This document shows positions 17,500-53,738 of a stretch of 64,000 bases of DNA, piece after piece. Below the pieces are notes generated by a model that had not been told where the DNA came from, did no database searches, and worked only from the letters and a program-made list of their open reading frames with translations. The position numbers and the translations under genes were made by a program. Positions within the stretch are counted from its first letter, which is position 1, and every line of letters starts with the position of its first letter. Source of the DNA: Hysterangium stoloniferum (lineage: Eukaryota > Basidiomycota > Agaricomycetes > Hysterangiales > Hysterangiaceae); assembly GCA_015178975.1 (NCBI GenBank), contig WHVD01000102.1, positions 251,001-315,000 on the forward strand. Direction: 5' to 3'.

Positions 17500-18769
17500 C
17501 GGACAATCACATTTTATGTGACACAGTTGGACTCAAGTTGCTTGGTCATCCTAGGACATAACTGGCTTACCTGACACAATCCATTGATTGACTGGGTATC
17601 TGGCAGTATTACTTTCCAGACACCTGTGGCACCCAATATAACTGTATCATCCCTGGCCATTTCAGCACCTGTGGCCTCTACAGCACCTCTGGCTTCACCG
17701 GAACACATGGTAATCCCATCCATTTCCCTCATTAATGCAGCAGCTTTTATTAGGACTACAAAATTGGATGGATCCCAGGCATTCACAATCAATTTGAAAG
17801 TTGACAAAGCAACCAGACATTTTGTGACTCCAGGTTCTGAGCACATTGCCAACCTAGAAGGCATCCCAGAGAAATATCATGACTTTGTGGATGTTTTTAG
17901 TAAATGAAAAGCTGACCAGCTTCTGCCCCACAGACAGTACAACTTAAAAAATTGATCTTGAAGACAGGGCCCAGCCACCTCTTGGACATATTCACCTGCT
18001 GTCCTCCATGGAACTCTCTGCCATATGGGATTTCCTGGATGAACACTTGTCTATAGGTTTTTTCCAGCCTTCAAAGTCTCCTTTCAGAGCACCCATCCTT
18101 TTCATCAGAAAAAAGGATGGATCCCTTAGACTATGCATTGATTTCCACAGACTCAATGCTGTCACATGGAAAGATAAGTATCTGCTCCCACTTATTTCCA
18201 ATCTCCTCGATGCTCTGCAGAATACCCAGATCTATACCAAGATAGACCTCAAACACACCTACCACTTTGTCTGGATCGCTGAGGGAGACAAGTGGAAAAC
18301 CACTTTCTGGACCCATTATGGAGCTTTTGAATGGTTGGCGATGCCCTTTGGGTTAACCAATGCTCTATCTGTTTTTCAACATTTTATTAATGATATTTTC
18401 TCTGACATGCTTAATGTAGGTGTCATTGTTTATTTGGATGACATTCCTATCTACTCTGAGGAGCCCATGGCACATAATGAACAGGTCCACGAGGTCCTCT
18501 GGAAACTCCAACAACATGGTCTATTCACAAATGGTAAAAATGTACTTTGGACATGGATGGAGTATTTGGGTTTCATTATGGGACCTGACAGACTCTGGAT
18601 GGATGAGGCCAAAGTACAAGTATCAAAGATTGGCCCAAACCCTGAAAAGTTAAAGATATCCAATCTTTCCTCGGATTTACCAATTTTTATTGGTGGTTTA
18701 TCCACAAATATTCTGAGATCATGGTCCCCCTTACTCATCTCACTCATGGAGGATAACCCAAAACTTTAA
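17500..18769 (+). pseudogene. Chromovirus protease end and reverse transcriptase
   Basis: 17500-17600 holds the protease tail (L-G-H-N-W-L, then the I-D-W signature). 17850-17907 is the linker with E-K-Y-H-D-F-V-D-V-F-S-K. From 18008 the reverse transcriptase frame is open for 253 codons: S-P-F-R-A-P-I, D-G-S-L-R-L-C-I-D-F, then M-P-F-G-L-T-N-A and the catalytic Y-L-D-D at about 18430. It copies element RNA into DNA. Stops at about 17905 and 17955 break the polyprotein, and the thumb region is cut by the insertion at 18770. Confidence 0.85.
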
Positions 18770-19385
18770 AAGTTATTTGTCCACTAAAGTATATATATAT
18801 ATACTGTATTGTTTGTTGTAGAATTAATATTTAATCAAATTCAGTCTATCAGGTGATACTCTGGGGAATAAGGAAATATTAATATTTATCTTGTATCTTA
18901 CAAAAGTTAGTCAAACAAACATATATAGATTATCCTTTTGGGGATAAATTCCACAACATGGATTGGTTGGCCAGATAGTTCTGGTTAACTTTCTTAACCA
19001 AATAAATTTAAATTATATGAACTACATTTGAAAGTTTGCATAATATACAAGAGAATACATCTTATTCCAAAGATTAAGTCATAACCCAAATAATTTTGGT
19101 TAACTATAATGTTTGTGGACATTTTAAAAGTCACAGAGACTAGAGAATGCATCTCATCCCAAAGGTTAAGTCATAACCCAAATAATTTTGGTTAACCATG
19201 ACATTTGTGCATATTTTAAAAGAGTATACGAGTTTTAAAGATGAAATTTTGGGGTAATGAAATATAAACTCCTAAAACATATAGTCATAGCCAAAGGAAA
19301 TAGTCTCACTTAAAAATATGAGGACTTTTCCATAACATTTTGTATATTCAATGAATTGTGACTATCCTCCCATAAGGATGCTCTG
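18770..19385. mobile_element. Unidentified insertion between reverse transcriptase and RNase H
   Basis: The pol frame stops at about 18768 and resumes at about 19388 with N-F-N-D-K-C-H-A-A-F, so about 615 bp is foreign. It contains an imperfect tandem repeat of about 95 bp (19045-19130 and 19140-19222; core GTCATAACCCAAATAATTTT). I see no clear terminal repeats, target-site copy or coding sequence. Confidence 0.6.
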
Positions 19386-20093
19386 TGGAATTTCAATGAT
19401 AAGTGTCATGCAGCTTTCAATCTTTTAAAAGATTCTTTTTCTTCAGCTCCCATTCTTTCCCACTGGAAGCTGGGCCTCCCACTCATCGTTTAAATGGATG
19501 CCTTGCACTATGCATTAGGAGACATTTTGTTGATCCAGGACTCCAACAGAGAAATTCACCCTGTCACTTTTCTCTCCCAGACTTTTACCAGTCCCGAGTT
19601 CAATGTCCATGACAAGGAACTTCTCACAATTTTTGAAGCCTTCAAAGTGTGGAGACACTATTTGGAGAGCACAGAAATTCTAGTAGATGTTGTAACTGAT
19701 CACAAAAACCTGGAATATTTTTCAACCACAAAAGCTTTGACCTGCTGGCAAGCCCAGTGGTCTGAATATCTATCTGCCTTTAATATCATCATCCATTTTC
19801 AACCCAGCCACATTGGGGGAAAACCTGACACTTTGACTAGACGATGGGACATCTATCCCAAAGAGGGGAGTAATGACTATGCCACAGTAAACCCACACAA
19901 TTTGAAACCAATATTCACAAACTCAGAACTTACTGCATCAGTCCACACTACTTACCTTATTCATCCAGTCATGCATGAAATTATCATTATGGACATTGAG
20001 AAATTACATCAAGATATTCTATCAACAATTCCACTAGACCCAGTAACCAAGGCACATCTTGATAACCCCATGGATCCCAGTCAACCCCAGTAG
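19386..20093 (+). pseudogene. Chromovirus RNase H
   Basis: After a stop at about 19491, the frame 19494-20093 carries M-D-A-L, F-N-V-H-D-K-E-L-L, the T-D-H-K-N-L block and the W-S-E-Y-L-S tail, all typical of gypsy RNase H, then the spacer to integrase. It degrades template RNA during reverse transcription. The short frame is intact, but it is separated from reverse transcriptase by an insertion. Confidence 0.8.
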
Positions 20094-20128
20094 TCCCTAG
20101 ACCAGCATGGTTTCATTAGACTTGACAA

Positions 20129-21192
20129 TTGTATCCATGTACATACCAGACTCCAATGGCCTCCACCTCAGGATCCTCCAGTACAAACATGATCACCCAC
20201 TCTTGGGACATTTTGGGCTCAACAAGACTCTGTCAATGTTGTGCAGAGAAAATACTTGTCCCAGACTCTGAGATTTTATTAAGCACTATTGTAAATACTT
20301 ACATTATTTGTTTACACTCCAAATCACAGCATCACAAACCATATGGCCTTCTGAAACAACTCCTGGTACTGGAATACCTGTGGAATTCCATCTCTATGGA
20401 TTTCATTGAACACCTACTGGACTCCAAAGGCTGTTCCACCATTCTAGTCATTGTTGCCAGATTCTCCAAGCAAGGTATTTTCATCCCAACACATGACACC
20501 ATTACATCCATGCAATTAGTGGAACTCTTTGTAATCCATGTATTCTCCAAGCATGGAGTTCCATCCCATGTAACCTCTGATTGAGGATCAGAGTTTGTAT
20601 CTCACTTCTTTAGATCCCTCAGAAAATCCTTGGACATGAAGTTACACTTCACATCCTGGTATCACCTGGAAGGTGATGGACAAACTGAGCATGTCAATCA
20701 GACACTGAACAATATCTCTGCATATATTGCAACTATCAACAGGACAACTGGAAATCCTTGTTACCCCTTGCAGAATTTGCATACAACAATGCACCCTCAG
20801 CCACTACTGGTGTAGCCCCTTTCTTTGCAAACAAAGGTTATAATCCCAATATTATGGTAGGCCTGGAATGGAACTTGGCCTCCACCCATGCTCAAGAGTT
20901 TGTCATGGACCTCAATGAACTCCATCAAGAACTCCAGAAAGTGATAACATCTGCCCAAGAACAATATCAATGTTCAGTGGACAAAAACTGGATTCTGCCA
21001 CCTAATTTTAAGATTGGTGACTATGTTTTTGTTAAAGCTCAATTCTTCCAGACTACCCATCCTTCTAAAAAACTTGCTGAAAAGTATCTAGGGCCATTTG
21101 AAATTATTGGACAAGCTGGCTCTTTATCATGGAACTGTGGCTTCCAGATATCATGTGTGTGGTGTACCCAGTATTTCATGTCTCTATGTTAG
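20129..21192 (+). pseudogene. Chromovirus integrase
   Basis: The catalytic core is visible with D in S-M-D-F-I-E-H (about 20400), D in V-T-S-D before G-S-E-F (about 20580, followed by a stop) and E in D-G-Q-T-E-H-V-N-Q (about 20680). The C-terminal part (20758-21192) includes L-A-E-K-Y-L-G-P-F. It would insert element cDNA into the genome. Stops and shifts lie between the three parts. Confidence 0.85.
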
Positions 21193-25098: not shown

Positions 25099-25705
25099 GG
25101 GGTTGTTAGAATGAAGAAAGGAGGTGGATGTGAGGCACTGGAAGTGCAGGATCTCTGTTAAGTTTTTGTGGTGCTGTTCCTAGACTGTATAACTTTCCGT
25201 TTGTCTGAGTGAGGTGGCAGTACTCATTGTAAATGGATAAGGACTAAACAAATACAAATAGACCTTATATAATCCAAAATACGTGGTGAATTCCCAACCG
25301 CAGCGACCCGAGCCCTAATGCTCGTGATCCCTCACTAACCCAAATCCCAGAAAAGTTAACACACTCCCTCGAGCATAAGGGGCTTGCAGTGACCATTCCC
25401 ACTCCCTCAAACAGATATCCATACTGTCCAAGTCTCCCCACAGCCCGAGCACTCCCTGAAGTTCAACAACTCTCAATCTGAACCAAAATGCCTCTACTGT
25501 GAATAGCAAGTCTCCCAGTCCAAGCTCCCTCACTGTAACTCCCATTCCCAATCAATCCCAAGGCCATTTATGGCAAGTGTGATGGCAGATGGCAATGTCT
25601 AAACATTGATCCAGGACAAACTTGACCTGACTCAGTATTCTGCACAGTCCTTCATGCCAGCGGCTAAAGTCGATTGTTTATGAGTGATAAGTCTCGCATG
25701 GTGTG

Positions 25706-26108
25706 TGAGAATGACGGTGGAATGTGAGAATGACGGTGGAATGTGAGAATGACGGTGGAATGTGAGAATGACGGTGGAATGTGAGAATGACGGTGGAATG
25801 TGAGAATGACGGTGGAATGTGAGAATGACGGTGGAATGTGAGAATGACGGTGGAATGTGAGAATGACGGTGGAATGTGAGAATGACGGTGGAATGTGAGA
25901 ATGACGGTGGAATGTGAGAATGACGGTGGAATGTGAGAATGACGGTGGAATGTGAGAATGACGGTGGAATGTGAGAATGACGGTGGAATGTGAGAATGAC
26001 GGTGGAATGTGAGAATGACGGTGGAATGTGAGAATGACGGTGGAATGTGAGAATGACGGTGGAATGTGAGAATGACGGTGGAATGTGAGAATGACGGTGG
26101 AATGTGAG
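25706..26108. repeat. 19-bp minisatellite, about 21 copies
   Basis: The unit TGAGAATGACGGTGGAATG repeats without visible change. Because 19 is not a multiple of three and the unit has no stop on the minus strand, all three minus frames stay open. These are not genes. Confidence 0.95.
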
Positions 26109-26430
26109 TGGTGGTATGCAAAGAGTGAAATCCGTGCGACGAACAATGATGTGTGGAATGGCAATTTGTAGCGACGAGATCAAAGGTGGTCTTCACAGCA
26201 CCTAGCTTTGGTTAATGGTAGCAAGCCGTGATCCATTTATGTTAAGTTTTCGTGGTGCTGTTCCTAGACCATATAACTTTCCGTTTGTCTGAGTGAGGTG
26301 GCAGTACTCATTGTAAATGGATAAGGACTAAACAAATACAAATAGACCTTATATAATCCAACATACATGGTGAATTCCCAACTGCAGTGACCCGAGCCCT
26401 AATGCTCGTGATCCCTCGCTAACCCAAATC

Positions 26431-27381: not shown

Positions 27382-27589
27382 TGTTAGAATTACATAATAG
27401 GGTGGAAAGTATTGACCTGAGCTGGATTTGAACCAGTGACCACTACATATGTCTGGATTACATGTCTAGTGCTCTTAACCCCTGAGCTATCAGGCCATTA
27501 AGAGTAGTTCTATTAAGAACCAGTTACTAGTGAGATGATTAGTCATCAGCAAGATATTAATATATCCAGCAACCATTGCTCATTCATCA
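27382..27589 (-). mobile_element. Solo LTR carrying a tRNA-like sequence, target-site duplication GTAAC
   Basis: It starts TGTTAGAATT and ends ATTCATCA. GTAAC at 27377-27381 is repeated at 27590-27594, inside the last bases of the C LTR. The layout matches 46235-46478 and the LTRs at 52659-53510. Confidence 0.7.
27413..27496 (-). tRNA. tRNA-Thr(TGT)-like sequence within an LTR
   Basis: 84 nt. A 7-bp acceptor stem (GGCCTGA with TCAGGTC), a perfect D stem (GCTC/GAGC), an anticodon loop CATGTAA and a T arm around GGTTCAAATCC can be drawn. The D arm closely resembles tRNA-Thr. An extra stretch of about 11 nt lies between anticodon and T arms, and base 33 is A instead of T, so it is probably not a working tRNA. 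Confidence 0.6.
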
Positions 27590-46234: not shown

Positions 46235-46478
46235 TGTTAGAAAACATGAGTAATGTAGAAAATGAATAGCCAGACTGGGGATTGAACCCAGGATCTCTCG
46301 ATTACATAACAAAGGTGTTAACCACTACACCATCTGACCTTGGGTAGGTTTGGTCTTACACTGTACTTAAGGATATAACCCTAAGCGCCATTCCTATTAG
46401 ATCATATACACACTGAACTCAGAGCTGTACACCATATGGTCCCAGTTGGAACAATGGTTGGCATTATATAATCTAACA
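46235..46478 (-). mobile_element. Solo tRNA-bearing LTR in nagB exon 5, target-site duplication GTGAG
   Basis: 244 bp, TGTTAGAAAA to ATCTAACA. GTGAG at 46230-46234 is repeated at 46479-46483. Same layout as the LTRs of the element at 52659-53510. Confidence 0.9.
46267..46339 (-). tRNA. tRNA-like gene inside the solo LTR (73 nt)
   Basis: Exactly 73 nt fold as a cloverleaf. Acceptor GGTCAGA/TCTGGCT has all seven pairs (two G-U). D stem is GTGT/ACAC and T stem CTGGG/CCCAG, both perfect, with a T loop TTCAATC. A and B boxes are good. The anticodon stem is weak (one mismatch, two G-U). Loop TATGTAA would give anticodon TGT, but base 33 is A, so decoding is doubtful. More likely it is an internal pol III promoter. 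Confidence 0.75.
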
Positions 46479-52012: not shown

Positions 52013-52680
52013 AAAGTCTAAACAAAGGGGGGATTCCTAGAGATGAGGATGACAGGCTCTGGGGGTCCATAGGGTTAGAATGTACTTAGCCAGGAGGTCC
52101 AGTTCTACAGGACAAATGGAGCTTGGCTTCAACTTATGTGTTGTGCCCTCACATGAACTGTTGGGGTGCTCCAGTATTTCAAAACAAGCAAATAGTATGT
52201 AACAGACTAAAAGTCCACACTTAGCTTAATTAGGCAGGAGGCCAAAATGCTCAGAGCTGGGGTGATAAGAGTCTCAGCTGGCAGATGATGTCTTGAAGAG
52301 GATTAAGTAAAAGAGTAGGGGAACAATATTTGAACTAAAGAATTATAGCATACAGGATGAGAGTTGTATACTAACATGAGACAGATGATCAATCATGGAG
52401 GTAAGAAGGCAAATGGATCAAAAGAAGCAAGTGATGAGATGAAGAGATGAAAAAACTAAATGCAAAGTAATAGTAGAATACTAAAAAGGATTGAGGTGGC
52501 AAATGATGTGCACATATAGAGCAGATAGTAGGAAAGCATTGGAATGGGAGTGGAATGGAATAATTAAAGGATAATCTATAGTAAACCAAATCTCAGGGTG
52601 CTGGGGGCAGTGATGCCACACTTTGGGATACTGATAACTGGATGCTAGAGGGTTGTCATATTAAAAGTGTAGAAAATGAA

Positions 52681-52751
52681 TGGCCAGACTGGGGATTGAA
52701 CCAGGGCTTTTGCATATATAGCAGGGGTGTTACCCATTACACCACCTGACT
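52681..52751 (-). tRNA. tRNA-like sequence in the 3' LTR of the TRIM
   Basis: 71 nt, same arms as at 53401-53476 but with a base missing from the T stem and a weak anticodon stem. Confidence 0.55.
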
Positions 52752-53047
52752 CTGGGAAACAGTGCTAGTATTACATAATTTAACACACTCCCATAATGCT
52801 AGCACTCAGCTACATTATATGCAAATATAGGTCCTCTCTGGCTCTTTTTTGTCCAGACTTGTCCACTATACCACACATACAAATATAGCTGTTCACTGTA
52901 AGATATGTTGTGCTGTGAGCACAAAATATCTAATGTGAAAAGATGAGTGAAATCTGATGATATTCTAGGGAACTTGGGAGGCTTTATATGCAGCAAAACT
53001 ACGAGTGGCGCAATCTTAAAGAACAAAAGCACATGTTGAGGACAATA

Positions 53048-53244
53048 GGAAAAAAGAGGGACAATGGGAAAAAGAAGGACAATGGGAAAAGGAAGGACAA
53101 TGGGAAAAAGAAGGACAATGGGAAAAAGAAGGACAATGGGAAAAAGAAGGACAATGGGAAAAAGAAGGACAATGGGAAAAAGAAGGACAATGGGAAAAAG
53201 AAGGACAATGGGAAAAAGAAGGACAATGGGAAAAAGAAGAACAA
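53048..53244. repeat. 18-bp minisatellite, about 11 copies, inside the TRIM
   Basis: The unit GGGAAAAAGAAGGACAAT varies slightly at the left. As 18 is a multiple of three, frames on both strands stay open and give lysine-rich or serine/proline-rich repeats. I do not regard these as genes. Confidence 0.95.
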
Positions 53245-53400
53245 TGGAGGGTTCGATACAATAGGACGTGTGATGTCATGCGTATTGATGACAAGATCAC
53301 AGTGTAGGGAGTCTCACTCCCTTACATCACTCTACACACAAGAACCATGCCCTATAGCACACAGCAGGGCCCATAACCTGTTAAAAGTGTAGAAAATGAA

Positions 53401-53476
53401 TGGCCAGACTGGGGATTGAACCCAGGGCTTCTGCATATGTATATAGCAGGGGTGTTACCCATTACACCACCTGACC
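53401..53476 (-). tRNA. tRNA-like sequence in the 5' LTR of the TRIM
   Basis: 76 nt. Acceptor GGTCAGG/TCTGGCC pairs fully, D stem GTGT/ACAC, T stem CTGGG/CCCAG. The anticodon stem keeps CTGC/GCAG around an enlarged 11-nt loop. The partner in the other LTR (52681-52751) has a 7-nt loop. Confidence 0.65.
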
Positions 53477-53738
53477 CTGGGAAACAGTGCTAGTATTACA
53501 TAATTTAACATGTCAGAGTGAAAACAAGCTGCAGGGAACCAAAAAGGTGATGATCCTAACAGTATCCCCCTATTAGGTTGAGGCCCATTGAGATCTTTTT
53601 AGAAAATAATGTCTAGCTGCCTTGTGTACATGCTTTGGTAAATATCTGCACCTATGATTATTAGTCAATGGGTGCTTGAGGTGATATAAAAATTTCAAAA
53701 TCCCCAATTTTTTATTAACCTTCCTTTTCCCTTTTCTT

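What the first reader, a model, noticed from the sequence alone, without database searches (positions are those of the whole stretch)
52659..53510. Miniature LTR element whose LTRs are built around a tRNA-like gene
Seen directly: 127/132-bp LTRs, an adjoining primer site and purine tract, a perfect 5-bp target duplication (TGTCA), no coding capacity, and in both LTRs a near-complete tRNA cloverleaf in element sense with A and B boxes. The known parallel is Cassandra, whose LTRs carry 5S rRNA promoters. A tRNA-bearing counterpart in a fungus is not something I can place. A pol III promoter inside the LTR could drive transcription without U3. Which enzyme set mobilises it is inference.
Basis: partly seen in the sequence, partly recalled or inferred. 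Interest (0 to 1): 0.88.

Follow-up and report, generated by a model that had tools for sequence, protein, structure and literature searches.

The report
tRNA-bearing mini LTR retrotransposon (Helenus-type)
This is a dead copy of a small, protein-less jumping element whose two end repeats each contain a tRNA-like gene; that kind was described in 2024, but hybrid copies elsewhere in the same genome point to the larger elements that probably move such elements.

Summary
Window 52659-53510 is a TRIM-type LTR element on the minus strand: LTRs of 132 and 127 bp, primer site, purine tract, TGTCA target duplication, and a tRNA-like cloverleaf in each LTR (Rfam 41.6 and 21.0 bits; cut-off 29). It is not unplaceable: Kojima (2024, PMC10886601) named such elements Helenus, fungi included. 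Its 852 bp include a nested 430-bp solo LTR; a usual member is 411 bp. The family is multicopy (189 exact LTR cores in 111 Mb). The window also holds solo LTRs of two other tRNA-LTR families; a fourth lies elsewhere. The family's primer site is a 15-nt perfect complement of the host initiator-tRNA anticodon arm and is shared with RT-bearing Copia elements. Not reported in the main text of that paper are recombinant copies joined exactly at the LTR/primer-site border. One (fourth family) has a 5' tRNA-LTR, an intact Copia gag-pol frame, an unrelated 3' LTR and matching 5-bp duplications. For the window's family, 6 of 69 such junctions are chimeric, though none with a proven RT-coding partner. 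This supports sharing of particles with Copia. Pol III transcription is plausible but untested. Verdict: new member of a known kind, with direct clues to its helper.

The parts
52654..52658 (.). target duplication TGTCA, one side
53511..53515 (.). target duplication TGTCA, other side
53379..53510 (-). 5' LTR, 132 bp, TGTTAA..TTAACA
53401..53476 (-). tRNA-like segment in the 5' LTR, 41.6 bits, with a 4-bp insertion in the anticodon loop
53364..53378 (-). primer site GGTTATGGGCCCTGC; 14 of 15 positions as in the usual family site
52897..53326 (-). nested 430-bp solo LTR of another element (TGTAAG..CTTACA, GTGA on both sides, 18-bp tandem array); not part of the original element
52786..52792 (-). 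purine tract GGGAGTG next to the 3' LTR
52659..52785 (-). 3' LTR, 127 bp, ending TTAATA instead of TTAACA
52681..52751 (-). decayed tRNA-like segment in the 3' LTR, 21.0 bits (below cut-off)
46235..46478 (-). solo LTR of the related family A2, GTGAG on both sides, tRNA-like segment 46267-46339 (44.9 bits)
27382..27589 (-). probable solo LTR of a third tRNA-LTR family (T3), GTAAC on both sides, tRNA-like segment 27413-27496 (44.4 bits)

Best explanation
It is a dead, nested-into copy of a multicopy Helenus-type TRIM: a non-autonomous LTR retrotransposon whose LTR is little more than a tRNA-derived unit between integrase ends. Proposed cycle: (1) TFIIIC and pol III use boxes A and B in the 5' LTR (inferred). 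(2) Transcription passes the short T4 run just after the tRNA and ends at the same run in the 3' LTR, so both RNA ends share the tRNA segment as the R region (inferred). (3) The RNA enters particles of a Copia element with the same primer site (supported by chimeras). (4) Initiator tRNA pairs by its anticodon arm with the primer site (complementarity shown, use inferred). (5) Copia reverse transcriptase and integrase make and insert the DNA with 5-bp duplications (duplications shown). Strand transfer at the shared primer site between two DNAs sometimes swaps LTRs or fuses elements (junctions shown, mechanism inferred).
For: LTRs, primer site, purine tract and 5-bp duplications; 15 of 30 fetched loci are solo LTRs with perfect 5-bp duplications. 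tRNA model matches in both LTRs and in fetched copies of four families, 39.0-52.2 bits. 15-nt perfect complement to the host initiator tRNA, positions 25-39 of the gene as read. The LTR/primer-site 16-mer occurs 631 times, control 0; 15 of 34 Copia RT hits on contigs C1-C45 have it 1.5-5 kb upstream on the same strand, 2 of 34 on the opposite strand. Chimeras: L038 with GCCAT; C35:906369-911437 with 5' tRNA-LTR, 1374-aa frame matching gag and RVT_2, unrelated 3' LTR, AGAGA; C2 with outer LTRs 249 of 251 and TTTTT. 6 of 69 junctions of the window's family are chimeric (with L038 and the window).
Against: No transcript was seen. Within family A, box A columns vary as often as the 5' flank (0.32 of columns each), though with fewer deviating cells (0.64 against 1.53 per column; box B side 0.21). 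Absence of T5+ runs is what shuffles give in 57-75% of cases. The RT-coding chimera belongs to family B, not to the window's family A: A's chimeras are with a gag-only element and with interiors (D) without long frames or (E) not examined. One of four chimeras with both ends read, C14, lacks matching duplications, and AGAGA and TTTTT lie in simple sequence. The integrase-core match in C35 is just under Pfam's cut-off (31.1 against 32.6 bits). Rfam at gathering threshold gave no hit in L016, where ARAGORN does.
Confidence: 0.7

Rival explanations
1. The LTR is driven by pol II like an ordinary TRIM, and the tRNA segment is an inherited tRNA or SINE insertion without promoter role.
For: No transcript data; within family A box A columns are no less often variable than the 5' flank; lack of T5+ runs is not significant; anticodon loop decays freely.
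Against: Four families in one genome keep the cloverleaf with boxes, and LTRs of A and A2 align only over the tRNA and its edges, 78 of 94 columns. A T4 run starts 4 nt after the tRNA in A, A2 and B, though not in the window copy of T3.
Confidence: 0.25
2. The chimeric copies come from recombination or gene conversion between integrated copies, or from misassembly, and say nothing about shared particles.
For: Junction homology is only about 16-18 bases but the families are abundant; C14 lacks matching duplications, and two of the three duplications seen lie in simple sequence.
Against: 5-bp duplications flank L038 (GCCAT), C35 (AGAGA) and C2 (TTTTT), which recombination between two insertions would not leave (criterion taken from PMC1950507, section 4). 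Outer LTRs of L038 agree at 116 of 120 bases, those of C2 at 249 of 251 columns. Junctions at the same border recur with several partner types; contigs reach 4.4 Mb.
Confidence: 0.25
3. The tRNA-like LTR segment is a working tRNA gene, a host-useful passenger.
For: ARAGORN calls tRNA-Ile(TAT) in many copies; all four families keep paired acceptor stems in the printed alignments.
Against: All 25 inserted bases among 20 haplotypes fall in the anticodon arm, in 5 haplotypes; anticodon calls differ between families and can be ambiguous, as in L078.
Confidence: 0.05

Closest known systems
Helenus (TRIMp3), Kojima 2024, PMC10886601
   Same: Short LTR element without proteins, tRNA-derived segment in both LTRs, primer site and purine tract, 5-bp duplications, primer site against the initiator-tRNA anticodon arm (the dominant type in fungal Helenus) or its 3' end, several families in one genome, solo LTRs
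   Different: Window copy carries a nested solo LTR; the host initiator-tRNA gene read here shows no intron whereas the paper reports one in rust fungi; chimeric copies with Copia are not described in its main text (word search). Sequence identity to any named Helenus family could not be tested
Cassandra (5S rRNA-bearing TRIM of plants), as described in PMC10886601
   Same: Pol III-transcribed small-RNA gene captured in both LTRs of a TRIM
   Different: tRNA here, no 5S rRNA match among Rfam hits of the window
Template-switch complex LTR elements, Sabot and Schulman 2007, PMC1950507
   Same: Three LTRs, two interiors, flanking duplications and near-identical outer LTRs, as in L038 and C2
   Different: There the switch is modelled between R regions of close relatives; here partners share little more than LTR ends and primer site, and C35 has two different outer LTRs

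Membership tests
Helenus | tRNA-derived sequence in the LTRs | tested here: met
   41.6 bits in the 5' LTR; 21.0 bits, below cut-off, in the decayed 3' LTR; 46.6-50.4 bits in fetched family A copies
Helenus | short (paper: under 1000 bp screened, 311-1263 bp found), no mobilisation proteins | tested here: met
   852 bp, usual copy 411 bp; no Pfam match in the only frame of 150 aa or more
Helenus | primer site and purine tract at the ends of the interior | tested here: met
   15-nt complement to the host initiator tRNA for the usual site
Helenus | 5-bp target duplications (fungal and plant members) | tested here: met
   TGTCA; 15 of 30 loci as solo LTRs with perfect 5-bp duplications
Helenus | boxes A and B conserved | tested here: inconclusive
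   Boxes present by eye in the four families (consensus recalled); within family A box A columns are not less often variable than the flank
Helenus | fungal members moved by Copia (proposed in the paper) | tested here: inconclusive
   Shared primer site and chimeras; no functional test, and no RT-coding chimera for the window's own family
Helenus | sequence match to a named family in Repbase or Data S1 | not testable with these tools
Cassandra | 5S rRNA-derived sequence in the LTRs | tested here: not met
   Rfam gives tRNA and no 5S rRNA in the element
tRNA-derived SINE | single unit without LTRs, primer site or integrase-type 5-bp duplication | tested here: not met
   Two LTRs, primer site, purine tract, TGTCA

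The most novel reading that the evidence does not exclude
The tRNA-LTR elements and Copia share particles, and plus-strand transfer between their DNAs at the common initiator-tRNA primer site exchanges whole LTRs. This can hand a coding Copia interior a tRNA (pol III-type) 5' LTR, and gives the short elements a route to new LTRs, new primers and new helpers, which would explain how several tRNA-LTR families with two kinds of primer site coexist in one genome.
Probability: 0.5. Interest if true: 0.62.

Novelty: new member of a known kind. Interest (0 to 1): 0.45.

Why it matters
[quoted passage not shown] A genome with hundreds of tRNA-LTR copies, coding Copia with the identical primer site, and joined molecules with target duplications makes the helper question answerable from sequence. 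It also warns that tRNA gene counts in such genomes are inflated by LTRs: ARAGORN's only two calls in this window both lie in LTR-type repeats.

Tried and rejected
Working tRNA gene: disfavoured because the insertions fall in the anticodon arm. 5S rRNA or Cassandra: no match. Absence of T5+ runs as a sign of pol III selection: not significant. The 158-aa frame in the interior: an effect of the tandem array, no Pfam match. A first pattern for the initiator tRNA hit one place that ARAGORN does not call a tRNA; a D-arm pattern then found three places, of which one, L093, was checked. An interior-only genome search found 7 places and missed copies already known, so it was not used as a count. In one search the line for the window's A2 LTR used wrong ends; the ends given here come.

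Literature: listings (20 of 54 shown; 20 of 1,126; 12 of 12; 10 of 18; 5 of 6,049) showed one paper on tRNA-bearing TRIMs, PMC10886601. Of it I read parts 1-5 of 6 of the whole text and passages; of PMC1950507 the abstract and section 4. The other papers I saw only in listings. Supplements were not read.

Full report
1. The thing itself. The element at 52659-53510 reads on the minus strand. In element sense it is: TGTCA; 132-bp LTR (TGTTAA..TTAACA); primer site GGTTATGGGCCCTGC; interior; GGGAGTG; 127-bp LTR; TGTCA. The LTRs agree in 124 of 132 columns. Each holds a tRNA-like segment in element sense: 41.6 bits in the 5' LTR and 21.0 bits in the 3' LTR, cut-off 29. The 852 bp are swollen by a 430-bp insert at 52897-53326 with GTGA on both sides and an 18-bp tandem array. 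A second copy of that insert, with CTGC on both sides, lies in L040, so I read it as a solo LTR of another element. The copy looks dead: diverged LTRs, a decayed 3' tRNA segment, and a nested insert with ten T5/T6 runs in element sense.

2. Copies in the genome. The window lies in a 111 Mb, 554-contig assembly. The 132-bp LTR gave 41 matches, 40 of 538 candidates scored. A 23-nt core through box A occurs 189 times, reversed-pattern control 0. LTR end plus primer site (22 nt) occurs 69 times, control 0. Of 30 fetched loci 15 are solo LTRs with a perfect 5-bp duplication, and one 128-bp LTR sequence recurs in 15 rows (L029 and L030 overlap, so some rows are the same copy). A usual element is 411 bp: 128 + 155 + 128.

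3. Other tRNA-LTR families. The window holds two more. A2 is a solo LTR at 46235-46478 with GTGAG on both sides. T3 is a probable solo LTR at 27382-27589 with GTAAC on both sides; in two fetched T3 copies, L168 and L170, the flanks match at four of five bases only. A full A2 copy, L164, has 656 bp, identical LTRs and CCCAC; 40 of 425 candidates were scored for A2 and 40 of 152 for T3. A fourth family, B, has 208 exact 25-nt cores, control 0, a 251-bp LTR and a 67-bp interior. Fetched copies outside the window score 39.0-52.2 bits; the host initiator tRNA scores 58.9. Of the ten loci, L016 alone gave no hit at the gathering threshold, although ARAGORN calls a tRNA there.

4. What the tRNA segment does. 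LTRs of A and A2 align only over A 27-119, 78 of 94 columns, which is the tRNA and its edges. Among 20 distinct A haplotypes (from 40 rows, overlapping loci included) all 25 inserted bases fall in the anticodon arm, in 5 haplotypes. That argues against decoding. A T4 run starts 4 nt after the tRNA in A, A2 and B, not in the window copy of T3. Results that do not help: box A columns vary as often as the 5' flank within A (0.32 of columns each; deviating cells 0.64 against 1.53 per column), and the lack of T5+ runs is what shuffles give in 57-75% of cases. Pol III transcription is therefore the favoured but untested reading.

5. Primer. A D-arm pattern found three places; the one checked, L093, is called tRNA-Met(CAT) by ARAGORN and shows no intron. 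The primer sites of A, B and a gag-only Copia element are perfectly complementary over 15 nt to positions 25-39 of that gene; that of A2 over 14 nt to positions 62-75, the 3' end with an added CCA. The window copy differs from the usual site at one of 15 positions. Interiors of A and A2 share 72 of 83 columns over A 56-133, so related elements use two sites on the same tRNA.

6. Helper. AACA plus the 12-nt primer core occurs 631 times, control 0. I compared the 34 Copia RT hits on contigs C1-C45 among the 150 listed (of 1,270 candidates) with the first 100 listed of the 631 sites: 15 of 34 have the site 1.5-5 kb upstream on the same strand, 2 of 34 in the same range on the opposite strand. I then read 20 sites, picked to avoid places already known as family A or gag-only: 5 have a tRNA-LTR upstream, 15 another LTR or unclassified sequence; because of the picking this is not a frequency.

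7. Chimeras. (a) L038 (C135): a 120-bp LTR without tRNA, the A interior, the A tRNA-LTR, a gag ORF (Retrotran_gag_2 and zinc knuckle), the same 120-bp LTR (116 of 120 identical), GCCAT on both sides. Of 20 loci of that gag-only element examined it is the only one with the TRIM piece. (b) C35:906369-911437: 5' LTR is the 251-bp B tRNA-LTR; then a 1374-aa open frame with matches to Retrotran_gag_2, DUF4219, Pol_BBD, gag_pre-integrs, RVT_2 and, just under its cut-off, the integrase core; 3' LTR is an unrelated 350-bp LTR (best local alignment 10 bp); AGAGA on both sides. (c) C2: B tRNA-LTR, interior starting like that of an RT-bearing Copia (L084), that Copia's LTR, B interior, B tRNA-LTR; outer LTRs 249 of 251 columns; TTTTT on both sides; no RT hit is listed inside it. 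(d) C14: B tRNA-LTR, Copia with an RT hit, Copia LTR, no matching duplication. For family A all 69 LTR/primer-site junctions were read over the first 60 bases: 62 lead into the TRIM interior (the window included), 6 into others (L038 gag-only; L100, L104, L116 type D; L130, L154 type E; types judged by eye), and 1, L131, is unclear. For B, 10 of 46 listed cores on C1-C45 have the exact site: 6 lead to another B LTR, 3 to a Copia RT, 1 (C2) to a Copia-like interior. Type D stretches in L161 and L162 have no frame over 113 aa; type E was not examined. So no chimera of the window's own family with a proven RT-coding partner was found.

8. Reading of the chimeras. The joins sit exactly at the LTR/primer-site border, where unrelated partners share about 16-18 bases. 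In plus-strand transfer the new LTR strand carries a copy of the primer site that pairs with the primer site of the minus strand; if two DNAs in one particle share that site, pairing can be between molecules. This is inference from textbook reverse transcription. Sabot and Schulman (PMC1950507, section 4) use flanking duplications and similar outer LTRs to tell pre-integration fusions from later recombination. L038 and C2 meet both; C35 meets the first and has two different outer LTRs; C14 fails. AGAGA and TTTTT lie in simple sequence, so L038 is the cleanest case.

9. Place among known things. Kojima 2024 (PMC10886601) defines Helenus as TRIMs with tRNA-derived LTR segments in fungi, animals and plants, with 5-bp duplications in fungi, primer sites of most fungal families against tRNA anticodon loops, the initiator tRNA being the dominant type, and a proposed Copia helper. 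The window element meets the structural features that could be tested; box conservation and helper stay inconclusive, and identity to a named family was not testable. The words chimer and template switch do not occur in that paper's main text. It is a new member of a known kind.

Noticed in passing
L038 and L047-L065 (G000): An abundant gag-only Copia-type element (about 1.43 kb, 120-bp LTRs, 95-99% identical copies, 40 of 157 candidates scored) with the same primer site and no reverse transcriptase.
   Followed up: partly
G000 C4:59743-60719 and C16:165975-166563: Tandem arrays of tRNA-LTR elements sharing LTRs: family B at 317-318 bp steps, family A at 283 bp steps.
   Followed up: no
L162 (G000:C24:163000-164400): Head-to-head arrangement: on one strand family A LTR followed by a type D interior, on the other a type D LTR end followed by the start of a family A interior.
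   Followed up: no
G000 contigs C14, C35, C60, C109, C137, C182: Family B cores are crowded on a few contigs, for instance more than 20 on C35, mixed with Copia, as in a repeat-rich region.
   Followed up: no
window 25632-26211: Long frames open in several reading frames through a tandem repeat on the minus strand.
   Followed up: no
window 17948-21192: Remains of an element with a RVT_1 reverse transcriptase match, broken into several frames.
   Followed up: no
L131 (G000:C301:362465-362590): Family A LTR followed by an interrupted primer site and unrelated sequence, perhaps a small insertion.
   Followed up: no
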